DNA from: a virus
Direction: 5' to 3' (one strand)
DNA length: 64,000 nt
IMG/VR virus record: IMGVR_UViG_3300032322_002033
Span: 30,075-94,074 of that record
Made by a program: the position numbers and the translations under genes. This document shows positions 6,207 to 55,726 of the stretch, piece by piece. Numbering within the stretch: position 1 is the first letter of the stretch; every line of letters begins with the position of its first letter. The notes beneath the pieces are model-generated. The model had not been told where the DNA came from. It saw only the letters and a program-made list of their open reading frames with translations, and made no database searches.

Positions 6207-7417
6207 ACTAATGTTTTATAAAATTCTGCTCTTTCTTTTGTTACAACATGTAGTGAATATTTTTTCGATACATGTTCATATAAGTTTTCACCTAAATCAA
6301 TACGTAAGTTAGGATTTTGTACTAATTTTTTCACATATTTTGCCCAATCGCTGTGGTTTCTCGAATCACCAACTAGTAAAGCGTTTCCACCATTATAGTT
6401 ACCATTGGTTAATGCGTGTTTTAAGTCGATAGTATATGGACCAAAATCACTTGCAATTAACGCCTTCTTATAAAAACCTGCTTCAATAACCTTTAGTTGA
6501 GATTTAACTTTATTAAAAATGTGTTGTTTAATCGGAGCCAAAGATATATCAAATTTTGAATAATTCCGAGCATAAGATGTGACAGGTTTTGTCCACACTC
6601 TCAAATAAGGTTCTTCACTTTCGTTTTCAAAATTTGTTTGAGTGAACTGATAAAGATAATCTTTATACTGAGGAGATACTATTGAATAGTTATTTGTAAA
6701 AATTTTCTCATACTCATGCCAAACAGTTTCGTGTGGTTTAATGGGTCTTTGTTTTTTCTCACCTGTTTGTTGGTTGATTTCTGTCATCATACCTCTTGTA
6801 TCAAATCCACACAATACGTATTGTATTTGGTCTTTAATTTCAGAAAGTTTTGAAACCATCCCATCCAATAACATTAAGTCATGTAAGTGTGATGAACCTC
6901 CTAACCAACCAACTCTAACTCTATCAGATTCAATTGTCGGTTCGTTAAATTGTGGTTCATTTGGGTCAATTGCGTTTGGGAATACAACAACATTAGGATT
7001 GTGTTTTTTAATCTCATCGGCAAAAATTTCCGTAGTTGTAGTTACGTATCTTGCAACCTTTAAGTTGTTGATTATTTTTTCATGAATTTTTTCTTGTCTA
7101 ATTAAATCATGTAAAGGATGTTCTTTTGTCGGTGCCCAATAGTCATCTAAATCACAAATTGTTATAATACCCATACTATTCAACATAGGGACTATTTGTG
7201 CTGACCTATCTAAATCTTGTCCAAGACTTCTATGATAATGAATTATCTGATATTGTTTAAAGTAATTTAAATTTGATAAATCAGGATTAAATTCAATATC
7301 GACATGGAAATCATCAGGATAATTATCTTGTAAAAAAACGTGTGGATTAATTGAACGGAATCGACCAACTCCTGTTCCATCCGAAGGTACTACTAAAATT
7401 TTAATTTTTTCTTTCAT
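6203..7417 (-). CDS. Glycosyltransferase, group 1 (GT4-like)
   Basis: A 404-residue GT-B type glycosyltransferase. The N-terminal half has KILVVPSDGTGVGRFRSIN and a DLDDYW motif near residue 120. The C-terminal half has RVGWLGGSSHLHDL, YVLCGFDTRG and the donor-site region FNKVKSQLKVIEAGFYKKALIAS, in which the conserved Glu of the E-x7-E region is seen. It is the first gene of the coupled operon that runs to position 1. A short AT-only inverted repeat (AGTTTA-ataa-TAAACT) lies immediately upstream of the start, but no TATTTAT element was found there. Sugar and acceptor are unknown. Confidence 0.8.
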   Translation of the reverse strand: MKEKIKILVVPSDGTGVGRFRSINPHVFLQDNYPDDFHVDIEFNPDLSNLNYFKQYQIIHYHRSLGQDLDRSAQIVPMLNSMGIITICDLDDYWAPTKEHPLHDLIRQEKIHEKIINNLKVARYVTTTTEIFADEIKKHNPNVVVFPNAIDPNEPQFNEPTIESDRVRVGWLGGSSHLHDLMLLDGMVSKLSEIKDQIQYVLCGFDTRGMMTEINQQTGEKKQRPIKPHETVWHEYEKIFTNNYSIVSPQYKDYLYQFTQTNFENESEEPYLRVWTKPVTSYARNYSKFDISLAPIKQHIFNKVKSQLKVIEAGFYKKALIASDFGPYTIDLKHALTNGNYNGGNALLVGDSRNHSDWAKYVKKLVQNPNLRIDLGENLYEHVSKKYSLHVVTKERAEFYKTLV

Positions 7418-43463: not shown

Positions 43464-46400
43464 ATGGCATCTAAAGTATACGTTTCACCCGGTGTATATA
43501 CTTCTGAAAGGGAACTTTCATTTATATCACAAAGTATTGGGGTAACAACATTAGGTTTGGCTGGAGAAACTTTAAAAGGACCAGCGTTCGAACCAATATT
43601 CTTAACAAGTTATGACGACTTCCAAACATATTTTGGAGGACTATCTGTTGAGAAATTTGTTAACACTCAGTTACCCAAATATGAATTACCATTCATTGCA
43701 AAACAATATCTACAACAATCAAATCAATTATTTGTAACAAGAGTATTGGGACTTTCAGGTTATGATGCCGGACCTTCTTGGACTATATCAACTGTTGCAA
43801 ATCCTGATTATTCAACTCTCAAAGTGTGGCCTCCAACCCAAGGTAATTTTAGACTTTTTACATTTTCAGGAAATACTGGTGGAACGGTAAATTACTATTT
43901 AACAGGGGAAGATACGTTTAATCATAATCAAATAAATACTTTTTCAGGTTCACCATTTTATAGTAAATTTGATAAAGTGTATACCAAATTCGATGGGGGT
44001 ACGTCAACAATAAGGCAAGATATTACGGCATTGTTAACTTCCATTTTTTTGGATAACTCATTATCAGCAACCACAACAGGTGTTTATGGTTCTGTTAGTG
44101 CGTCCACCCCGTCAACAGACATATTTTCAACACTTACTAATTACACTAACCATTATGACGTTCCTAATTTATTATTAACAGGTTGGACAAACACGGATAG
44201 ACTAAATGACGCTTGGTATTATGCGGGATTTGATATTAAAAATGATGGTACGTATTCTGGAGTTTCAGGATATTGGACAATTAGAACATGTACAAATCCC
44301 AGTGACCCATATTGTTTCAGGTCAAGTGGTATTGGTAGTTTTACAGGTATGTGTACGTTTAATCATATTTTTTTTTCAGGTAACTCATATACCGATTATA
44401 ATGATTTAGTAGTTGCAACTTTAAGGTCACGAGGAAAAACACAATACACCTCAACATTACATGGACCCCAATATCAAGTTACTGCAGATACCGCATCTTT
44501 TATAGGTACAGGTGCATATTCAGGAGTTACCCAAAATCCTTTTTCAACATTTGTAATATCAGGTTCCGATAAAAGTAATAATGTGTTTTCTTTTGAAACT
44601 TCTTTAGATATAAATAACGCAAATTATATCAGTAAAGTTTTTGGAACATCTAATTTTGAAAAGGATAGTGTACAGGTTCCATTATTCGTGGAAGAAAGAT
44701 ATCAAAATCTTTTAACTTATGGTTATAATAAAGGATATATTCGAGGATTGAATACTGATTTTCAATATCTTCCTGAATCTAGAAATAAAAACCAAGAATC
44801 GATAGGTTATTATTTACAACAATATCAATCTCCTGAATCACCATGGGTTGTTTCTGAATTAAGAGGTAATTTAGTTTACCAATTGTTTAAAATAATTTCA
44901 ATACCTGACGGTAATAGTGCTAATAGACAAGTTAAAGTATCAATTGCAAATATATCTTTTCAATACGGAACGTTTGATTTACTTGTTCGTGATTACTATG
45001 ATACGGATGCTAATCCTGTTATTATTGAAAAGTTCACAAAAATGTCGATGGATAGTTCCCAAAGTAATTACATCGCAAAACGTATTGGTACATCTGATAG
45101 TGAATACACAATTCAATCAAAATACATAATGGTTGAAGTTAATCCTGATGCTCCATTTAACGCATTACCTTGTGGTTTTGAAGGGTATAGAACTAGAACA
45201 TATTCAACTTTAACTTCTCCATATGTTATTTACAAATCAAAATATGATACATATGGAGAGGAAATATTTAACCCTCCATTTGGTTCAACTCAGGGAGATG
45301 ATACTGTATTTAGTCAAGGTGATAACGTTAGAAGAACTTACTTAGGTATTTCAGATACAATTGGCTATGATTCTGATTTTTATGATTACAAAGGGGCTTA
45401 TAATGACCCATCATATAATTGGTGTTCAGAAGTCACCCCAACTAAGTGGCAAAAAATTACAAAGGGTTACCATATGGATATTAACGCATCTGCAGTAACT
45501 ATTGCAAATGAATATAGTAATTCAGGAGACCCCAAATTTGTATGTGGAAATGCAAGTTTCAATAGTGAACCTGAAGATTCATCTAGTCCTTATTATAACT
45601 TATTTTCTCGTAAATTCACATTCTTAGTTAATGGTGGATTTGACGGGTGGGACATTTATAATGAAAGAAGAACAAATTCTGATTCATATATCTTAGGAGC
45701 GTCAGGTTACAGGTCAGGTCAATTGGCTGGATGTACAAGATATCCGACATCTACAGGTTGGGGAGCGTTTAGACCAATAACCTATAATGACAACACAACT
45801 GATTATGGTAATACTGACTATTACGCATATTTAATTGGTGTTCAAACATTTGCAAATCCTGAGGTTACTAATATTAACGTTTTTGCAACACCTGGTATTG
45901 ATTATGTTAACAATCAACAACTTATTGTTCAAACAATCGATATGATTGAAAACGACAGAGCGGATTCAGTTTACGTGGTTACAACACCCGATTTTGATAT
46001 ATTACAACCATCGTCTTCTTTAGATAATTTAATTTATCCAAGAGATGCTGTAAGTAATTTAGAAAATAGTGCAATTGACTCTAATTACACTACAACTTAT
46101 TATCCTTGGGTATTAATGCGTGACACAAGTAATGGAAGTCAGATTTATTTACCTCCGACTGCTGAGGTATGTAGAAATATTGCATTAACTGATAATATTG
46201 CATTCCCATGGTTTGCAACTGCAGGTTATACAAGAGGATTGGTAGATGCGGTAAGAGCTAGAAAAAAATTAACATTAACTGATAGGGATGTATTGTATAC
46301 AGGTAGAATTAACCCAATTGCAACATATAACGATTCAGGTCCAATAATTTGGGGTAATAAAACATTACAAGTAAATGCGTCTTCATTAGATAGATTGAAC

Positions 46401-46700
46401 GTTAGAAGATTATTACTACAAGCTCGTAAGTTGATTTCGGCAGTTGCAGTTAGATTGTTGTTTGAACAAAATGATTCAGTCGTTAGACAACAATTCTTAG
46501 ATGCTGTGAATCCTATTTTAGATAGTATTAGACGTGACAGAGGTCTCTATGACTTCCGAGTTGTTGTCCAAAATACAACTGAAGATTTAGATAGAAATCA
46601 ATTAGTTGGTAAAATTTATTTAAAACCAGTTAAATCTTTAGAGTTTATTGATATTGAATTCTTAATTACACCGACAGGTGCATCATTTGATAATATTTAA
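43464..46700 (+). CDS. Tail sheath protein paralogue, copy 2
   Basis: A 1078-residue full-length paralogue of the preceding sheath. N-terminal (VYVSPGVYTSERELSFISQS) and C-terminal (RLLLQARKLISAVAVRLLFEQ, DIEFLITPTGASFDNI) regions are nearly the same, while residues about 115-300 are strongly divergent apart from the shared anchor YNDLVVATLRSRGKTQY. Both look intact, so this is not an obvious pseudogene. A mixed sheath, a second function or alternative surface domains are possible. It has its own promoter and is followed within 4 bases by a HAD phosphatase gene. Confidence 0.93.
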   Translation: MASKVYVSPGVYTSERELSFISQSIGVTTLGLAGETLKGPAFEPIFLTSYDDFQTYFGGLSVEKFVNTQLPKYELPFIAKQYLQQSNQLFVTRVLGLSGYDAGPSWTISTVANPDYSTLKVWPPTQGNFRLFTFSGNTGGTVNYYLTGEDTFNHNQINTFSGSPFYSKFDKVYTKFDGGTSTIRQDITALLTSIFLDNSLSATTTGVYGSVSASTPSTDIFSTLTNYTNHYDVPNLLLTGWTNTDRLNDAWYYAGFDIKNDGTYSGVSGYWTIRTCTNPSDPYCFRSSGIGSFTGMCTFNHIFFSGNSYTDYNDLVVATLRSRGKTQYTSTLHGPQYQVTADTASFIGTGAYSGVTQNPFSTFVISGSDKSNNVFSFETSLDINNANYISKVFGTSNFEKDSVQVPLFVEERYQNLLTYGYNKGYIRGLNTDFQYLPESRNKNQESIGYYLQQYQSPESPWVVSELRGNLVYQLFKIISIPDGNSANRQVKVSIANISFQYGTFDLLVRDYYDTDANPVIIEKFTKMSMDSSQSNYIAKRIGTSDSEYTIQSKYIMVEVNPDAPFNALPCGFEGYRTRTYSTLTSPYVIYKSKYDTYGEEIFNPPFGSTQGDDTVFSQGDNVRRTYLGISDTIGYDSDFYDYKGAYNDPSYNWCSEVTPTKWQKITKGYHMDINASAVTIANEYSNSGDPKFVCGNASFNSEPEDSSSPYYNLFSRKFTFLVNGGFDGWDIYNERRTNSDSYILGASGYRSGQLAGCTRYPTSTGWGAFRPITYNDNTTDYGNTDYYAYLIGVQTFANPEVTNINVFATPGIDYVNNQQLIVQTIDMIENDRADSVYVVTTPDFDILQPSSSLDNLIYPRDAVSNLENSAIDSNYTTTYYPWVLMRDTSNGSQIYLPPTAEVCRNIALTDNIAFPWFATAGYTRGLVDAVRARKKLTLTDRDVLYTGRINPIATYNDSGPIIWGNKTLQVNASSLDRLNVRRLLLQARKLISAVAVRLLFEQNDSVVRQQFLDAVNPILDSIRRDRGLYDFRVVVQNTTEDLDRNQLVGKIYLKPVKSLEFIDIEFLITPTGASFDNI

Positions 46701-47639: not shown

Positions 47640-48125
47640 ATGGCTGATTTACTGATTAAAATGCCGATACCATATGAACCCAAACAAAAGAACAGGTTCA
47701 TTTTAAAATTTGATAATTTAGGTATCAATGAATGGTTCGTGGAAAGTACAAGTAGACCATCAATAACTATAAAAGAAAATGAGATACCCTTTATTAATAG
47801 TAAAAGATATGTTGCATCTAGTTATGAATGGGAAACAATAGATGTTACATTTAGAGACCCAATCGGTCCATCGGCTACACAAGCTTTAATGGAATGGGTT
47901 CGTCTTCATGCTGAGTCTGTTACAGGTCGTATGGGTTATGCCGTAGGATATAAAAGAGATTTGGAATTGGATTTATTAGACCCAACAGGTGTTGTTATTG
48001 AAAAATGGATGTTAATGGGTACATTCTTAACTAAAGTTGATTTTGGTGATTTGGAATATGGTGAAGGTGGACTTGTTAATATTACTGCCACTCTAAGACC
48101 TGACTATTGTGTTTTAGTATACTAA
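47640..48125 (+). CDS. Tail tube protein (gp19-like)
   Basis: A 161-residue tube subunit, the size of T4 gp19 (163). The N-terminus IPYEPKQKNRFILKFDN, then WFVESTSRPSI, the strand WETIDVTFRDPIGPSATQAL and the C-terminal LEYGEGGLVNITATLRPDY match the beta-barrel of contractile-tail tube proteins that stack into the DNA conduit. It has its own late-type promoter with an A-rich leader and is followed by a hairpin terminator, as expected for a very abundant virion protein. Confidence 0.95.
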   Translation: MADLLIKMPIPYEPKQKNRFILKFDNLGINEWFVESTSRPSITIKENEIPFINSKRYVASSYEWETIDVTFRDPIGPSATQALMEWVRLHAESVTGRMGYAVGYKRDLELDLLDPTGVVIEKWMLMGTFLTKVDFGDLEYGEGGLVNITATLRPDYCVLVY

Positions 48126-48220: not shown

Positions 48221-48973
48221 ATGAACGAGCAAATCGCTGGACAAGAAAATTTTTCATTACCTCACGACATAGTTGTATTACCAAGTGAAGGTAAGTATTA
48301 TAAAAATAAAAAGAAGTCAGTTAAAGTAGGGTATTTAACTGCAGTTGATGAAAATCTAATAGTATCTTTATCTACGGGTGAAGCGACTCAAATGATGTCT
48401 CAATTAATTAGAAATAAACTATATGAACCTGAATTGTCACCATACGATATGTTAGAAGGTGATATTGAGGCGATATTAATCTTTTTGAGAAATACGTCTT
48501 TTGGTCCTGAGTATAACTTCACATTAATTGACCCTGAAACAGGAAAAGAATTCTCACATTCTATAGTTTTAGATGAATTGACGTTTATAAAACCAAATGT
48601 TGAACCTGATAGTGAAGGTTTATTAAAAACAACATTACCAAAATCAAATGTTGAAATTAAATTAAAATTATTAACTTACGGTGAATTAATGGATATTGAC
48701 AGAGCAACAAGAAAATATGTTGGAGGTCAAGTCAAACCTATCGTAACTAATAAACTATCAAAACAAATTGTTGAAATCAACGGAAGTAGAGATGCGAACG
48801 AAATCACATCATTTATTTCTAAAATGCCAATTATGGATTCTAAGTACATTTCTAAATTCATTTTAGAAAATGAACCAAGAATTGATTTTAACAGAGAAAT
48901 TATAGCCCCGTCAGGAAAAAAGGTTCTTACAAAGATTACCTTTGGGGCGGAGTTTTTTCGCCCTTTCTTCTAA
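48221..48973 (+). CDS. Baseplate/tape-measure chaperone, gp26-like
   Basis: A 250-residue protein with the start IVVLPSEGKYYKNKKKSV, VGYLTAVDENLIVSL and helix-rich middle PYDMLEGDIEAILIFLRNTS, as in T4-type gp26 and the T4_baseplate family, involved in hub or tape-measure assembly. It ends FGAEFFRPFF, and the reading frame continues in +1 as a gp51-like segment (to 49115). The slip site GAG-TTT-TTT-CGC at 48950-48961 could give a 297-residue fusion by a +1 shift. The position right before the tape-measure gene is that of frameshifting tail-assembly chaperone pairs. The 95-bp spacer upstream has no clean TATTTAT at a useful distance. Confidence 0.7.
   Translation: MNEQIAGQENFSLPHDIVVLPSEGKYYKNKKKSVKVGYLTAVDENLIVSLSTGEATQMMSQLIRNKLYEPELSPYDMLEGDIEAILIFLRNTSFGPEYNFTLIDPETGKEFSHSIVLDELTFIKPNVEPDSEGLLKTTLPKSNVEIKLKLLTYGELMDIDRATRKYVGGQVKPIVTNKLSKQIVEINGSRDANEITSFISKMPIMDSKYISKFILENEPRIDFNREIIAPSGKKVLTKITFGAEFFRPFF
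48953..48961 (+). promoter_or_regulatory. Candidate frameshift site (TTT TTT CGC)
   Basis: Two Phe codons followed by the Arg codon CGC. A Phe-tRNA can re-pair from UUU to UUC by a +1 step, as at the influenza PA-X site UUU-CGU; a -2 step on the U run would give the same frame. Confidence 0.55.
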
Positions 48974-49115
48974 GTATTTAGACAATTTATTAGACCAATA
49001 TTATTTGATGGGTAAAATGCTTCATACATCCTATTCGGATTTTATGAACATGCCTATTTATATTAGAAATGCGATTACTAGTAAGATAATCAAATATAAT
49101 AGTAAAGGTAAATAA
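48960..49115 (+). CDS. gp51-like extension read by frameshift
   Basis: A 51-codon open frame, +1 relative to the upstream gene, ending TAA at 49113-49115, three bases before the tape-measure ATG. It reads ALSSKYLDNLLDQYYLMG, then SYSDFMNMPIYIRNAITSKI, with the FF-A-L and MP-x-Y-x-R pattern of gp51-like or gpT-type assembly chaperone extensions. There is no ATG before 49008, and a start there would lose half of the segment, so expression as a fusion with the gp26-like protein is the simplest explanation. T4 has separate, adjacent genes 26 and 51. Confidence 0.65.
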   Translation, partial: ALSSKYLDNLLDQYYLMGKMLHTSYSDFMNMPIYIRNAITSKIIKYNSKGK

Positions 49116-49118
49116 AGT

Positions 49119-51071
49119 ATGCAGGCAAATCAGGGAGGTGGTGGACAAAGTTCACTTACAAACGAAACGGTTTTAAAAGGTATGATTCCTGGTGCTGTCC
49201 AAATCGATGCGGTAAAATCAATATTAAAATCAATTGAAGTATATTCAAATTTAAACCAGTCTGTTGTTGATTATGGTACATTCATCGGTCAAAATGTTGC
49301 TTACCAAGAATTACTTACTCAAAAAGCAATTGAGTTTGGAAAACAACAAACCTTAAACATAAAGTCTACATCAGATTTTGAAAAAGTATTTTTTCAAATA
49401 AACCAAGAATTTAGTTCAGCTTATGGTAGAATTTCTTTGTTAACTAATGAACAAGTTGGGAATGTTGTTAAATATTCAGATGTTTTAAAAATAGCGTCCT
49501 CTGATTTATTAAACAACTTTTCTGATATTGGGTATTCAGTTGATGATGTTACTAAAGTAACCGCTGATTTAGCCAAATCTTCTAATAAATTTGCGGTTCC
49601 ATTACAATTAGTAGCTAATGAAGTAATTCCTAAATTATCTTTAATAAATAAATTAGGATTTACAAATGGTGTTGAGGGTCTTACCGAAATGGTTGCTCAA
49701 TCTAAATTATTAGGTTTAAGTTTTGAAAAAGTACAACAATATGGTGAAAAAATGTTTGACCCTGAGCAAGCTCAAATGGCGGCAAACAAATTTACTATGT
49801 TAGGTGCTCAAATTTCAGAATTTAAAGACCCATTTTTTTGGATGGGTTCAGTATATGATGGATTTGAAAAGATTACCCCAAAAGTATCTGAGTTATTTTC
49901 AACGTACTTACAATTTGATGAAGCAACAGGACGATTTAAAGTACCTAAAGGAGCTATTACGGACATTCAAAAATTATCTGAAGAATTTGGTATTACTTAT
50001 GAAGAGGCAGTTAAAACAGGGGGTCAATTTTTACAAGTTGAAAATCGAGTAAGTAAATTAAAGGGGGCATTTAAAAATTTAAATGATACGGAATTAAGGA
50101 GTTTAGCATCAAATGTTGTAACTACTACAGACGCTGCGGGAAAATTAGTGTACCAATTTGATTTGTTTGACAAAGAAGGAAAAACAACTACCGTTTCTAA
50201 AACATTAGAACAATTACAGGGTGATTTACAAACACAAGAAGAAATTTTAAAATTTTATAAACCACCTGAATATGAAAAATTGAATAACGATGAATTAGTG
50301 GAGACATTAAGACAGGGTTCAATTAGTGTAGGTGAAGAGTATGCTAGATACGGTAAGGTTACCTCTCAACAAATTCCTTTAGAGATGGCTCAAGCAGGAG
50401 TCACACCTGAACTTGTGGATAAATCTTTAGAAATTTATAAATCAAACGTTCAAGGGTTTATTAGTACATTTAATAGTTCAAATGCTCAGTTTAAATCGTT
50501 TTTGGATGGGTTTAATGGGAACATATCAACCTTTGTTAATAATTTAACGTCAGGTAATTTTCAAAAGGCTTTTGGAGATTTAACTTCTTTAGTTGGACAA
50601 TTTACAAATGTTGCTGGAACTGGAATATTAGAAAGCATACAAAAGTCTTTTACTAGTATTGTGGATACACAATTACCTAATTTAAGTACTAGTATTGATA
50701 CGTTAAATAATGCGGTTAACAGAATAAAAGGTGTTTTTGAAAATATTGAAAACTGGTCAAAAGGATTGAATGCTGAAAATGTCTCACAACCCGGCACAAA
50801 AGGTCCGAATAATTTAGAAATGAAAGAATTAACGGGGGGTCTTTCTGCAGCTATGCAAACGCCAAAAGTTAACGAAGTTGATTTTTCAAATATTAAAGAT
50901 ATGAATTTAACTACTGAAAATACTACTAATAAAAATGTTAATGGTAAAGTAATTTTAGAAGTTACATCATCTGGTAACCTTGATAAGGGTACGATGGAAT
51001 CCTTTAAAAAAGAAATTATGCAACCATCATTTTTACAACCTTTAAAAGTGGCGTTGGAAAACATGATATAG
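49119..51071 (+). CDS. Tail tape-measure protein (gp29-like)
   Basis: A 650-residue, mainly helical protein that should sit inside the tail tube and set its length. It is close in size to T4 gp29 (590). The sequence is a series of amphipathic helices with conserved-looking stretches such as GYSVDDVTKVTADLAKSSNK, DPEQAQMAANKFTMLGAQIS and FITYEEAV-type hydrophobic repeats, and a Gly-rich start QANQGGGGQSS. No transmembrane segment is clear. Its position after the tube and chaperone genes and before baseplate cap genes fits. The tail here is likely of T4-like length, by comparison of protein sizes. Confidence 0.8.
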   Translation: MQANQGGGGQSSLTNETVLKGMIPGAVQIDAVKSILKSIEVYSNLNQSVVDYGTFIGQNVAYQELLTQKAIEFGKQQTLNIKSTSDFEKVFFQINQEFSSAYGRISLLTNEQVGNVVKYSDVLKIASSDLLNNFSDIGYSVDDVTKVTADLAKSSNKFAVPLQLVANEVIPKLSLINKLGFTNGVEGLTEMVAQSKLLGLSFEKVQQYGEKMFDPEQAQMAANKFTMLGAQISEFKDPFFWMGSVYDGFEKITPKVSELFSTYLQFDEATGRFKVPKGAITDIQKLSEEFGITYEEAVKTGGQFLQVENRVSKLKGAFKNLNDTELRSLASNVVTTTDAAGKLVYQFDLFDKEGKTTTVSKTLEQLQGDLQTQEEILKFYKPPEYEKLNNDELVETLRQGSISVGEEYARYGKVTSQQIPLEMAQAGVTPELVDKSLEIYKSNVQGFISTFNSSNAQFKSFLDGFNGNISTFVNNLTSGNFQKAFGDLTSLVGQFTNVAGTGILESIQKSFTSIVDTQLPNLSTSIDTLNNAVNRIKGVFENIENWSKGLNAENVSQPGTKGPNNLEMKELTGGLSAAMQTPKVNEVDFSNIKDMNLTTENTTNKNVNGKVILEVTSSGNLDKGTMESFKKEIMQPSFLQPLKVALENMI

Positions 51072-51109: not shown

Positions 51110-54100
51110 ATGTCAGATGTATTATCTTTTAATGGTTCAAAACAGTTTAGGGATAAACTTATAACAAGAAATTTAGTTCCTTACTATGTTGAGGGGTCTT
51201 ACGTACCGCCCAACGCACCATTAAACTATGAAATAGTTCAACAAGATAATTCACCAATTGATAGTGAAAATATAAGCTATGAAATTTTATCTGAACCTGA
51301 AAACGCGACAATTATTAACAAGTACCAACCTGAAAACTTTTTTGATGGTGCTGAATTCCTATCAGTTGTTGACCCACCAGGGGTTAATGAGGGTTTATTA
51401 AAAGATTTATCAACAGGTCCAAACGGAGAGTATATTGATTTTGTTGCTCCTGAATATAGTATATATGAAATTTTAACAAATACTAGTCAAAATTTATCTA
51501 ACGATACCTTCATTCAAAGATTGGCGGCTCAAAGACTTAAAGAGATATTTGAAGAAAGGATTGCTTCACAAATTGAAAGATATACAATAGGTAGAGTTAA
51601 TTTAAGTGCATTACAAGACCCATTTAATGCTAGTTTAGTTTTAAATGGACAACAACCTGTCATATATGATGATTTCACAATTACGGTACCTGACGGACCA
51701 ATAGATATTGCGTTATTTTTTCTACAAAGATTATCCGGTACTTATATTCCTGTTTCACCAATTGAAGGGGATTATACGACACCTGTTGAAAAGCAAAAAA
51801 CTGCTGCCGGTCAATTAATTGCAAATACTGGACTTGGAAGATTAGTTGGTAGATTATCTAATCGAGTATCTAATTTAATTAATTCTTCAGAAAAATTTTT
51901 ACAAAACACGGGTACAGGTCAAAAAAGGGCAATGTTCAACAGTATTGGATGGAATAGATTTAAACCACCATATGTTGATGCAATAGCTGGAGGACAGGCA
52001 ATTGCTAATTTATTTAACAAAAATCAATCATATACTAATTTTTATGTTGGTAGTGAACAAGAAGAAATTAATTTTATAAATTCACCTGCAAGTTTAATAC
52101 CTACAGACGCTTATGGTAATCCAATGAACATTATTGTTTATGGACCAAATAAGCTTGCTGATTTATATGAAGAAAATAGTACTTTAATTTTTGGTAACAA
52201 TAGTCAAACTTATGCCGATAGACCAGCACTTGATGGTGGATTTGTTTGGATAAGTGAAGAGACAAAATCTGAGGCTGGTAAAAAGGTGGGACAAGGTGGG
52301 GAACTATACGACTCTGACCCAAACTTTAATCAAATTTCTCCATACTACGAACAAGTTACATCAACAAACTATGATTTGAAAAAAGGGTCGATTTTAGATG
52401 AAACTCAAAGAATTGTTGATTCTGCTCCTAAGAAGGGTAAAGAAAGATTAGAACACGTTGGTAATGCCATTAACCAAGTATCAAAAGTATTTTTTGATGG
52501 TTATAAAGAAATTACCAAAGGTTCTCGAGTTAAAAAATATGTAACTAAAAACGGAAAAGAAGTTGGAGAAGAATATGGAAGAGTTTTCACTAAAGATAAT
52601 CCATATTTTGCGTATGGTAATTTACAATCTACAATAGCTAATACATCAGGTTTAGAAACAAGTGGAAATATAAGAAGGTCGTCATATTCTGTTTTAGACT
52701 CAACATACAATCTTAATATTAACCCATATAAGACATCTTCCACAAATCTTAACAATCCTACTGGTGGTCCTGCAAATGTTAAAAAATATATGTTGTCTAT
52801 TGAGAATTTGGCTTGGAAAGGAAGTTCAGAATATCTTGATTTACCCGATATTGAGAAGGGACCAAATGGAGGTAGAATTATGTGGTTCCCACCTTATGAC
52901 TTGACATTTGATGATAATTCACAAGCGCAATTCGATGCTACTGACTTTTTAGGTAGACCAGAGCCAATATATACGTATAAAAACACATCAAGGTCAGGTA
53001 ATCTTGGATTTACAATTATTGTTGACCACCCTTCGGTTTTGAATTTAATTGTTAATAAAGTTTTACAAGGAGAGAGTTCGAGGATAACTGATGAGGTTGT
53101 TGATTCATTTTTTTCAGGTTTAAAAAAGTATGATTTATACGAGATTGCTAGAAAATTTAATACTGTTAGTAGAACTAATTTAGAACAATTATATAACGAT
53201 GTATTAAGTGATGCGAATTCTTCTGATGAGGCGAAAAGACAAGCGGCAATTGCCTTAGGTTCTACCAGTACTACACCTAATGTTGAATTACCTGAAGTAG
53301 GTATTGATTATAATGACTATGGATTTTATTTTGACATAACGTCAACATCATCTTACCAAGATGATTATGATAATTATTTAAATAATTTACCAAACATATT
53401 AGTACAAGCCGGTTCATTTTCTTCTCAAACTGAAACTTTCTTTAATGAAGTAATTAAATCAAATTTTGATAAAGCAGATGCAATAAGAACCAAGGTTAAA
53501 TCATTAATTGAAAATGATAACATGAATGTTATTATTAGGATTAATGGTAGTAAAACAATTGGAGAAAGTGACAATTCATCAGTACAATTAGCGAATCGAA
53601 GATTAGAATCGGTTAAAGGTTTCTTTTCTGCCGCTGGTCTTGACAAGTATTTTGAAAATGAAAAATTGAGGATTGTTGGTACAGAGACTTTAGGAACATT
53701 AACTGATGGTATTGCTAGAGAAGGTAGTTCTGAAACAATTAATTGTTCCGAAACTTTAACAGGACAAGAAATACAATATTCATATAAAGCATTAGCTTGT
53801 AGAGCGGTTCGTTTTGAAAACATAGTTGTAAACGCTCCATCGGCAAATGTTAATAATCAGGGGACTCAACAAACTCCTGAAAATAACCCTAATGCTAAAA
53901 CGTTAAATGGTAGAAAACCACAAGGAAATCAAGGTGCTACACCAAACGCACAAGGATTAAGTAAAAAAATAATAAGACAATTATTAGTTGAGTCTGATTA
54001 TTTTGAAATTCTAAAAAAGGATAATCCTTTCTTTTATGATTCAATTAAAAGTAAAATTAAATACTTCCATCCTGCATTCCATTCTATGACACCCGAAGGT

Positions 54101-55726
54101 TTGAATAGTCGTATTACTTTTTTAAATCAATGTGTTAGACCTGGAAAAACAGTATCTACAAAAACGAGTGAAGGGAGTTTAGTTTCAAATGACGCAATTA
54201 ATACTAATTTTGGTAGACCACCTGTTTTAGTTTTAAGAATTGGAGATTTTTACAATTGTAAAATTATTCCTGGAACTATGAAGTTTGATTACGATGAACA
54301 TCAATTAGACATTAATCCTGAAGGTATTGGAGTACAACCCATGGTAGTTAAAGTTAGTTTGGACTTTGAAATGATTGGAGGTCATGGGTTAAAAGGACCT
54401 GTCTCTGAACTTCAAAACGCATTATCATTTAATTTCTATGCTAATACTGAAATGTATGATGAAAGAGCGACACCGACTGAGGATACAAGTGCGGTTGACG
54501 TTTCATTATTGGCGGCTATTGTTAATCAAGAACCCGCGTCAAATCTAAAAGATGTCTCAAATATTTTAGAAAATGACGGAGGAACAACAATTGGAAACAT
54601 TACGAATAATGTCCCATCAGGAAATACTCAAAGTGGGGTAATCGAATATAAAACATTTTTTGATAAATTGGTTGATAGTACTAAGAGTTACTTTGAAAAA
54701 ATAACATCAACATCTGAAAGCGTAATAAATGAATACAATTACGGAGTTTGGAAACAGATGATTAGTGAAATTAATTTTAGGGCTGGATTTATTGACAATC
54801 TACAAAATCCATCAATTACAGCAGTTAAGATTTTTGGTAAACCTACAAATTATGAACAAAATTTAACAGATGTAAAAGATGAGTTGATTACTGATATTGA
54901 CACTGACCAAGAACCTTTAATTGAACAATTAAATGATGATACCGCAATCACAGATGGTAATAAAGAAATTGTAAAAAATAATTATAAACAATATATTAAT
55001 AATTATTTCGGAACTTTTGTTGGTGGGGTTGGTTCAAAAACTCAGGATGTTGGAAATTACCAAGCTGATTTTTATCAAAATTTTAGAAAAATGGATTTTA
55101 TTTTAACTAAAAATGATGGTAAAATACTTACAGATGGTAACCAAAAAATTTATAGTTTAACAGGTGAAACAGTACAAGTTGAAACTGATTTAAGTTCCGA
55201 TTATTTACAAATTGGAACTGATATGCAATCTTATTATGATTTATTATTAACTAATAATGTAATTTTAGAAATTGATGAACCCGATGTTTTATTTACACCA
55301 TTAACAGGATTGATAAATACTGATGAAAAAAATAGACTATATACTATTTTGTCACCTGTATTTTTAGATGTTAATAAAAGAAATGAATTATCGACTGAGT
55401 TAAAGAAAAATTTATTACCTGTTAGTTCTGCGGAAACCATACAATATATTGATAGTTATGTTGAAGGAATTGCTTTAGATTTCCAAACAGAAAAAACTGC
55501 CGAGGTTGAACTAATAACAAATTTAAAATCTTCGACAGATTATCAAACGTTTGCTAACTATAATCCAAATGTTAGTGGAGTTGCAATTAAAGGAAAAAAT
55601 AGGAATTATACTTATACCACACCTAAAGATGATGCGACTGCAAAAACCAACCTTAAACAAATCTATCAAACTCAAAATTTGAACCAAGATAAAACAACAT
55701 ATAACGGTAAAAAAGTTTTTAATTAA
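51110..55726 (+). CDS. Baseplate tube-cap-like protein with OmpA-like domain
   Basis: A 1538-residue baseplate protein. Around 560-690 and 1030-1125 are two parts like the tube-fold caps of T4 gp48/gp54: RIMWFPPYDLTFDDNSQAQF with EPIYTYKNTSRSGNLGFTII, and FGRPPVLVLRIGDFYNCKII with PMVVKVSLDFEMIGGHG. Between them (about 770-905) is a domain with MNVIIRINGSKTIGES and NRRLESVKGFFSAAGLDKYF, the pattern of OmpA-like peptidoglycan-binding domains. The N-terminal 500 and C-terminal 400 residues are unassigned. An OmpA-like domain here could touch the cell wall during injection. The stop overlaps the next ATG (TAATG). Confidence 0.65.
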   Translation: MSDVLSFNGSKQFRDKLITRNLVPYYVEGSYVPPNAPLNYEIVQQDNSPIDSENISYEILSEPENATIINKYQPENFFDGAEFLSVVDPPGVNEGLLKDLSTGPNGEYIDFVAPEYSIYEILTNTSQNLSNDTFIQRLAAQRLKEIFEERIASQIERYTIGRVNLSALQDPFNASLVLNGQQPVIYDDFTITVPDGPIDIALFFLQRLSGTYIPVSPIEGDYTTPVEKQKTAAGQLIANTGLGRLVGRLSNRVSNLINSSEKFLQNTGTGQKRAMFNSIGWNRFKPPYVDAIAGGQAIANLFNKNQSYTNFYVGSEQEEINFINSPASLIPTDAYGNPMNIIVYGPNKLADLYEENSTLIFGNNSQTYADRPALDGGFVWISEETKSEAGKKVGQGGELYDSDPNFNQISPYYEQVTSTNYDLKKGSILDETQRIVDSAPKKGKERLEHVGNAINQVSKVFFDGYKEITKGSRVKKYVTKNGKEVGEEYGRVFTKDNPYFAYGNLQSTIANTSGLETSGNIRRSSYSVLDSTYNLNINPYKTSSTNLNNPTGGPANVKKYMLSIENLAWKGSSEYLDLPDIEKGPNGGRIMWFPPYDLTFDDNSQAQFDATDFLGRPEPIYTYKNTSRSGNLGFTIIVDHPSVLNLIVNKVLQGESSRITDEVVDSFFSGLKKYDLYEIARKFNTVSRTNLEQLYNDVLSDANSSDEAKRQAAIALGSTSTTPNVELPEVGIDYNDYGFYFDITSTSSYQDDYDNYLNNLPNILVQAGSFSSQTETFFNEVIKSNFDKADAIRTKVKSLIENDNMNVIIRINGSKTIGESDNSSVQLANRRLESVKGFFSAAGLDKYFENEKLRIVGTETLGTLTDGIAREGSSETINCSETLTGQEIQYSYKALACRAVRFENIVVNAPSANVNNQGTQQTPENNPNAKTLNGRKPQGNQGATPNAQGLSKKIIRQLLVESDYFEILKKDNPFFYDSIKSKIKYFHPAFHSMTPEGLNSRITFLNQCVRPGKTVSTKTSEGSLVSNDAINTNFGRPPVLVLRIGDFYNCKIIPGTMKFDYDEHQLDINPEGIGVQPMVVKVSLDFEMIGGHGLKGPVSELQNALSFNFYANTEMYDERATPTEDTSAVDVSLLAAIVNQEPASNLKDVSNILENDGGTTIGNITNNVPSGNTQSGVIEYKTFFDKLVDSTKSYFEKITSTSESVINEYNYGVWKQMISEINFRAGFIDNLQNPSITAVKIFGKPTNYEQNLTDVKDELITDIDTDQEPLIEQLNDDTAITDGNKEIVKNNYKQYINNYFGTFVGGVGSKTQDVGNYQADFYQNFRKMDFILTKNDGKILTDGNQKIYSLTGETVQVETDLSSDYLQIGTDMQSYYDLLLTNNVILEIDEPDVLFTPLTGLINTDEKNRLYTILSPVFLDVNKRNELSTELKKNLLPVSSAETIQYIDSYVEGIALDFQTEKTAEVELITNLKSSTDYQTFANYNPNVSGVAIKGKNRNYTYTTPKDDATAKTNLKQIYQTQNLNQDKTTYNGKKVFN

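What the first reader, a model, noticed from the sequence alone, without database searches (positions are those of the whole stretch)
48940..49121. Probable programmed +1 (or -2) frameshift fusing gp26-like and gp51-like chaperones
The gp26-like gene ends at 48973, but a +1 frame that is open from 48906 to 49115 encodes a gp51-like segment (FF-A-L then MP-x-Y-x-R). It has no ATG until 49008. The overlap holds TTT-TTT-CGC (48953-48961), where Phe-tRNA can move from UUU to UUC; the influenza PA-X +1 site is UUU-CGU. A -2 step on the U run would reach the same frame. Frameshifting chaperone pairs before the tape-measure gene are established for lambda-like tails, usually by -1 shift; in T4 the corresponding genes 26 and 51 are separate.
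Basis: partly seen in the sequence, partly recalled or inferred. Interest (0 to 1): 0.75.

Follow-up and report, generated by a model that had tools for sequence, protein, structure and literature searches.

The report
Frameshifted T4-type tail chaperone gene
In this phage one gene appears to make both a short and a long tail-building helper protein, because some ribosomes skip one base at a fixed spot; T4 itself uses two duplicated genes (26 and 51) for the same job, so this shows two ways of solving one assembly problem.

Summary
A gp26-like gene (48221-48973, PF12322) overlaps a +1-frame segment that ends at 49115. About 120 distinct relatives keep the phase, the protein downstream and a UUU-C or UUU-U site at the same place. 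They include cultured Flavobacterium, Microcystis, Bacillus, Listeria, Streptococcus, Streptomyces and Rhodothermus phages. Many have no start codon or have a +1-frame stop just upstream, so internal initiation fails. Several sites lack a U run (AAC-UUU-CUA, CUG-UUU-CGC, UUC-UUU-CGU), so +1 fits and -2 or transcript slippage does not. The short product ends where T4 gp26 ends. The +1 segment matches the C-terminal extension that makes gp51 longer (profile E 9e-5). T4 and two other Straboviridae tested carry two PF12322 genes; the frameshift phages whose record gave a match carry one. This is therefore the lambda G/GT logic inside the T4 gp26/gp51 family: a new variant of a known kind. That T4 has two separate genes for this is already published (Vladimirov 2022, not readable here). 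No shifted product has been observed.

The parts
48221..48973 (+). gp26-like short tail assembly chaperone (0 frame, 250 aa)
   Evidence: PF12322 E 2.5e-10 over full length, phrog_150 'baseplate hub' E 4.8e-13; only PF12322 copy in the 94-kb record
48956..48959 (+). proposed slip tetranucleotide UUU-C: P-site Phe codon UUU (48956-48958) re-pairs at UUC (48957-48959)
   Evidence: invariant TTTTTTCG in the window clade; UUU-C or UUU-U at the homologous place in most distant relatives
48959..48961 (+). 0-frame A-site codon CGC, used 2 times in 20265 codons of this window
   Evidence: always CGC, CGT or CGG in the clade
48960..49115 (+). +1-frame C-terminal extension (51 aa after the shift, plus stop), equivalent of the gp51 C-terminal extension
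   Evidence: conserved ungapped across relatives; profile match to Straboviridae gp51 C terminus E 9e-5
48221..49115 (+). predicted long isoform, 297 aa, read with one +1 step (P0004)
   Evidence: phrog_150 match extends from profile position 233 to 264 of 282 when the extension is included
48905..48910 (+). 5' arm of upstream stem, outer helix (GCCCCG)
   Evidence: pairs with 48943-48948
48920..48924 (+). 5' arm of upstream stem, inner helix
   Evidence: pairs with 48938-48942
48938..48942 (+). 3' arm of upstream stem, inner helix
48943..48948 (+). 3' arm of upstream stem, outer helix (TGGGGC), ends 7 nt before the P-site codon
   Evidence: accounts for the invariant GGG codon 242
49119..51071 (+). 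downstream gene in the tape-measure position
   Evidence: weak phrog_1538 tape measure match, E 0.12; in immuto and LIS04 the annotated tape measure gene holds this position

Best explanation
Programmed +1 ribosomal frameshifting. Most ribosomes read the gene to 48973 and make the short chaperone (gp26 type). A minority, with peptidyl-tRNA-Phe on UUU 48956-48958 and the rarely used CGC codon waiting in the A site, slip one base forward, so that the anticodon GAA re-pairs with UUC; they then read GCC onward and make a 297-aa long isoform with a gp51-type C-terminal extension. In this clade a stem-loop (48905-48948) that can refold behind the ribosome next to the E site probably pushes the mRNA toward +1. 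The two isoforms probably work as lambda gpG/gpGT do: the short form coats the tape measure protein, and the long form also recruits the tail tube protein. Shown here: overlap, phase, site and product conservation, covarying stem, single gene copy, relation to gp26/gp51. Inferred: the slip itself, its direction, its rate, the stem's effect and the chaperone roles.
For: Site and phase conserved in ~37 window-clade loci, 83 distinct distant loci and ten phage records from several host phyla. 44 of 83 distant loci have no ATG/GTG/TTG in the +1 frame from its last stop to 10 codons past the site, and 27 have a +1-frame stop within 5 codons upstream; in the window clade L037 has a +1 stop directly before the site. 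Sites without a usable -2 re-pairing: UUC-UUU-CGU (GXN1), AAC-UUU-CUA (LR756508), CUG-UUU-CGC (BRock), UUC-UUU-UGG (L160 group). Overlap codons conserved beyond amino-acid need. CGC is nearly unused here. Stem: 95.9% of cells paired, covariation score above all 500 shuffles, 18 both-side changes against at most 2 in slid controls; most stable 54-nt window of the gene in 19 of 23 representatives. An upstream refolding hairpin stimulates +1 shifting at a hungry codon in a 70S system (PMC6321510). T4, RB43 and phiP4-3 have two PF12322 genes; each frameshift phage with a match has one.
Against: No protein or reporter data. L007, L014 and L024 keep the site but have non-standard pairs in the stem, and the stem was not found in the UGG clades, so it cannot be essential in general. 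In BRock and pSt2308, phages of GC-rich hosts, the A-site codon is also CGC and may not be rare there (not tested), so codon rarity may not be the general driver. L170 and L175 encode the extension as a separate ORF. Both stem arms are coding, so some of their conservation may come from protein constraint, and related sequences inflate covariation counts.
Confidence: 0.88

Rival explanations
1. A -2 shift on the U6 run reaches the same frame and adds one phenylalanine (EFFFALSS).
For: U6 is invariant in the window clade and permits re-pairing; -2 shifting is known in phage Mu (review PMC5009743).
Against: Relatives with the same phase have U3 or UUC-UUU sites where -2 cannot re-pair. The 3' C or U after UUU, which +1 needs, is kept in nearly all relatives; Listeria LIS04 (UUU-UUU-AGU) is the exception and would slip at its first UUU.
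Confidence: 0.06
2. RNA polymerase slippage on the T6 run makes a fraction of mRNAs with one U fewer, which are read without any ribosomal shift.
For: A T6 run is present in this clade; the product would be identical.
Against: Relatives with the same phase have only T3 at the site (GXN1, LR756508, BRock, LuckySocke, pSt2308).
Confidence: 0.03
3. The +1 segment is a separate small gene with its own start (TTG 48942 or ATG 49008).
For: TTG at this place occurs in most clade members; a separate short gp51 is annotated in P-SSM2, and L170/L175 have a separate ORF.
Against: Conserved protein begins upstream of ATG 49008. The TTG is part of the conserved stem (UUUGGGG) and is missing at this position in L007, L037 and L053; a +1 stop lies between it and the site in L037; 44 of 83 distant relatives have no start codon there.
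Confidence: 0.05
4. The overlap is a degenerate or chance extension without function, or an assembly error.
For: None found; the T run invites suspicion.
Against: Conservation at DNA and protein level in many independent contigs and finished genomes.
Confidence: 0.01

Closest known systems
T4 gp26 and gp51 (PF12322; hub assembly chaperones; tail assembly chaperone pair according to Vladimirov, Gautam and Davidson 2022, Virology 566:9-15, as cited in PMC10885494)
   Same: Same protein family; short form ends at phrog_150 position ~233-235 like T4 gp26, long form carries the C-terminal extension of T4 gp51.
   Different: T4 has two paralogous, divergently transcribed genes; here one gene and a frameshift.
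Lambda gpG/gpGT and other tail assembly chaperone frameshifts (Xu, Hendrix and Duda 2004; reviewed in PMC5009743)
   Same: Two overlapping frames between the tail tube and tape measure genes, short and long isoforms sharing an N terminus.
   Different: +1 instead of -1; no sequence relation found; the review states this frameshifting is conserved in long-tailed phages 'except T4'. +1 use is proposed there for HSTV-2.
Influenza PA-X (UCC-UUU-CGU, +1)
   Same: Same P-site and A-site codon pattern UUU-CGN; no 3' structure needed.
   Different: Bacterial ribosome, upstream stem-loop, and the extension is added to a whole protein rather than replacing a domain.
RF2 prfB (CUU-UGA, +1, close upstream Shine-Dalgarno)
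   Same: P-site tRNA slips forward over a slow A-site codon; a duplex close behind the P site; some relatives have CUU-UGG.
   Different: Sense codon instead of stop; an mRNA hairpin instead of an mRNA-rRNA duplex.
Vandenendeviridae and Andersonviridae chaperones with -1 shift at GTTTTT (phage Adele, PMC12846349)
   Same: Frameshifted chaperone of a contractile phage at a U run.
   Different: -1 direction; sequence relation not tested here.

Membership tests
PF12322 / T4 gp26-gp51 family | Sequence match over the family profile above the curated cut-off | tested here: met
   40.9 bits against cut-off 24.5, residues 29-245 to profile 11-217 of 219
PF12322 / T4 gp26-gp51 family | Long form bears the gp51-type C-terminal extension | tested here: met
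   T-segment profile against Straboviridae gp51 C-terminus E 9e-5, full-length fused profile against gp51 E 2e-5, each one comparison; phrog_150 match extends to 264 of 282 (273 for LR756508) against 233 for the short form
PF12322 / T4 gp26-gp51 family | Two separate genes for short and long form (as in T4) | tested here: not met
   One copy in G000 (94 kb, possibly incomplete) and in each frameshift phage record with a match; two in T4, RB43, phiP4-3. So it is a member of the protein family but not of the two-gene arrangement
G/GT-type tail assembly chaperone frameshift | Overlapping ORFs between tail tube and tape measure genes, sharing one start | tested here: met
   gp19-like tube 47640-48125 upstream, tape-measure-position gene 49119 downstream; annotated so in immuto and LIS04
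G/GT-type tail assembly chaperone frameshift | Conserved slippery site with conserved phase in relatives | tested here: met
G/GT-type tail assembly chaperone frameshift | Short and long isoforms made in a fixed ratio; both absent from the virion | not testable with these tools
   needs proteomics
G/GT-type tail assembly chaperone frameshift | Structural likeness to a solved chaperone | tested here: inconclusive
   HK97 chaperone 2ob9 appears with prob 0.63, TM 0.51 of target but E 0.8
Refolding upstream hairpin as +1 stimulator (PMC6321510) | Stable hairpin adjoining the E site upstream of a hungry A-site codon | tested here: met
   Stem ends 4 nt before the E-site codon in the window; broken or weakened in L007, L014 and L024, absent in UGG clades
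Refolding upstream hairpin as +1 stimulator (PMC6321510) | Hairpin raises +1 efficiency | not testable with these tools
   needs reporter assay

The most novel reading that the evidence does not exclude
A naturally selected upstream hairpin that drives +1 frameshifting at a UUU-CGN site on bacterial ribosomes, inside a chaperone family whose short and long forms are made in three interchangeable ways in different phages: +1 frameshift, -1 frameshift or adjacent small gene, and gene duplication.
Probability: 0.5. Interest if true: 0.72.

Novelty: new variant of a known kind. Interest (0 to 1): 0.6.

Why it matters
T4 has stood as the exception among long-tailed phages because its chaperones are not made by frameshifting. 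The T4 chaperone family itself does appear to use frameshifting widely, in the less common +1 direction, and the Straboviridae look like a lineage that replaced the shift by duplication. It gives a natural, testable case of an mRNA hairpin behind the ribosome promoting a forward shift, so far known from engineered constructs and from bypassing in T4 gene 60. It also means that the long isoform is missing from the annotations seen of cultured phages such as Flavobacterium immuto, Bacillus SP-15, Listeria LIS04 and Streptomyces BRock.

Tried and rejected
Shine-Dalgarno-like stimulator: GGAG lies close to the site in the window but is not kept (GAA in many relatives), and the invariant GGGG is better explained by the stem. 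Downstream RNA structure: none predicted in the window clade and no signal in the UGG clades. Short extension searched alone in PHROGs, Pfam and phage records: no match, too short for single-sequence searches. T4 gp51 C-terminus with few sequences gave only E 0.024; adding seven more diverse sequences gave 9e-5. An alignment including T4 proteins was too divergent for a pattern scan. GTDB genomes hold no close relative of this gp26, so no host could be named. Foldseek against PDB gave nothing significant for gp26-like or gp51 models.

Full report
Observation. The window codes for a gp26-like protein at 48221-48973, 250 aa, with a PF12322 match above the curated cut-off and a phrog_150 'baseplate hub' match. 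It lies between a gp19-like tube gene (47640-48125) and a gene in the tape-measure position (49119). The +1 frame is open from 48906 to the stop at 49113-49115 and its first ATG is at 49008. TTT-TTT-CGC sits at 48953-48961.

Conservation in close relatives. A scan of IMG/VR gave 74 related loci. In every one with sequence over the junction, gp26 ends ..EFFRPF.. or close to it, the -1 frame is closed and the +1 frame continues for 50-61 codons with the pattern FF-x-LSS-x-Y..LD..YYL...SYSDF..MP.Y.R (L073 and L074 are a more distant pair with W for R). The block TTTGGGG(C/T)NGA(A/G)TTTTTTCGNCCTTTCTTCT is nearly invariant. Among conserved amino acids, codon identity averages 0.53 upstream and 0.86 in the last codons, p = 6e-4. 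Past the 0-frame stop, the +1 frame aligns without gaps and varies most at third and least at second codon positions.

Conservation in distant relatives. Loci related to L073 and to LR756508 (27% and 28% identity to the window protein) keep the phase. Of 83 distinct loci, 55 have TTT-TTT-TGG, 14 TTC-TTT-TGG and 14 TTT-CTT-TGG. Phage records add TTC-TTT-CGT (Streptococcus GXN1), TTT-TTT-CAC (Bacillus SP-15), TTT-CTA (a 484-kb uncultured phage), TTT-CTT-TGG (Flavobacterium immuto), TTT-TTT-TGG (Microcystis Mel-JY01, Rhodothermus RM378), TTT-TTT-AGT (Listeria LIS04) and CTG-TTT-CGC or CTG-TTT-CAG (Streptomyces phages). In the records whose annotation was read, the long form is not annotated; the extension is missing, or listed as a separate hypothetical protein.

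Why a frameshift and not a separate gene. In 44 of the 83 distant loci no ATG, GTG or TTG lies in the +1 frame between its last stop and ten codons beyond the site, and in 27 the +1 frame has a stop within five codons upstream. In the window clade L037 has such a stop directly before the site.

Why +1. Forward re-pairing of UUU to UUC or UUU (or CUU to UUU) is possible at the listed sites; in LIS04 it would have to be at the first UUU. Backward re-pairing by two is impossible at AAC-UUU-CUA, CUG-UUU-CGC, UUC-UUU-CGU and UUC-UUU-UGG. The same sites exclude polymerase slippage on a long T run as the general mechanism. In this window the A-site codon CGC is used twice in 20265 codons, which fits a hungry codon, and the pair UUU-CGN is that of influenza PA-X (reference listed in PMC5009743). 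In the Streptomyces phages CGC may be common (not tested), so rarity is probably not the only driver.

Upstream stem-loop. RNAalifold on 18 relatives predicted a stem between 48905-48910/48920-48924 and 48938-48948. On 29 distinct sequences 95.9% of cells pair; the covariation score exceeds all 500 shuffles; both-side changes number 18 against at most 2 when the partner is slid. Pair 48905-48948 is G-C, A-U or G-U, with A-U on two separate branches; pair 48922-48940, both third codon positions, is A-U, G-C, G-U or C-G with repeated changes on the tree. In 19 of 23 representatives this is the most stable 54-nt window of the gene. L007, L014 and L024 have non-standard pairs in it and L007 is predicted not to form it, and UGG clades show no counterpart. 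Huang, Cho and Chang (PMC6321510) showed that a refolding hairpin next to the E site stimulates +1 shifting at CUUUGA in a 70S system when the A site is starved. The stem here ends four bases before the E-site codon, so the same role is plausible but untested.

Relation to T4. T4 gp26 and gp51 both match PF12322, gp51 only over residues 1-201. On phrog_150 (282 positions) T4 gp26 ends at 235 and gp51 at 280; the 0-frame products of the frameshift phages mostly end at 233-235, while the fused window product extends to 264 and the fused LR756508 product to 273 (other fused products only to 237-244). A profile of the +1 segments matches the C-terminal extension of Straboviridae gp51 at E 9e-5, and the full-length fused profile matches gp51 at 2e-5 (each a single comparison). 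T4, RB43 and Proteus phiP4-3 hold two PF12322 genes. The frameshift records with a match hold one; two records (immuto, Mel-JY01) are too diverged for this model, and several of the contigs may be incomplete. P-SSM2 holds one, followed by a 57-aa annotated gp51 in the -1 frame over AGTTTTTTCGTATAA. L130, L158 and the GAP32-type jumbo phages also show a -1 arrangement over TTTTTTC, and L170 and L175 a separate ORF. The predicted structure of the window's gp26 (mean pLDDT 88) finds named gp26/T4-like hub assembly proteins among its best viral matches.

What is known. The Atkins review (PMC5009743) says the G-T frameshift is conserved in long-tailed phages except T4 and names -1, -2 and +1 versions. 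PRFect (PMC10885494) cites Vladimirov, Gautam and Davidson 2022 for T4-like phages carrying one short and one long chaperone gene. That paper is not held, so I could not check whether it lists frameshifted gp26-type genes; the Adele paper attributes to it polyT -1 signals in T4-like phages. The protein pairing is therefore known; the +1 mode in this family and the upstream stem were not found in what could be searched.

Verdict. A real, widely conserved programmed frameshift, most likely +1, that makes short and long forms of a T4-type tail chaperone. Steps not shown: the shifted protein, its ratio, the effect of the stem, and the chaperone function in this phage.

Noticed in passing
L130 2250-2330, L158 2250-2330: Two relatives have TTT-TTC-TGG, a closed +1 frame and an open -1 frame with the same extension, as if the shift changed from +1 to -1 at a U-UUU-UUC heptamer.
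   Followed up: partly
L170 2227, L175 2215: The extension is a separate ORF with an ATG just after the gp26 stop, so the fusion seems lost or replaced.
   Followed up: partly
L209 2193 (P-SSM2 7217-7390): Cyanophage gp26 is followed by a 57-aa annotated gp51 in the -1 frame over AGTTTTTTCGTATAA, a possible -1 frameshift.
   Followed up: partly
L187, L188, L189 near the end of the hub gene: GAP32-type jumbo phages have TTT-TTC-GTA and an open -1 frame carrying the extension motif, currently annotated as a separate small gene.
   Followed up: partly
window 48914-48916 and codon 218 of gp26 (48872-48874): GGA (Gly232) and GAA (Glu218) codons are invariant in all 23 representatives without an evident reason; GGA lies in the bulge of the upstream stem.
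   Followed up: no
window 51110-55726: A 1538-aa ORF after the tape-measure-position gene has no family match beyond weak ones and a stretch that looks OmpA-like by eye.
   Followed up: no
window 43464-46700: Tail sheath gene of 1078 aa, about 1.6 times the T4 length (T4 length from memory); Pfam sheath domains match only its C-terminal third, so it probably carries a large insertion.
   Followed up: no
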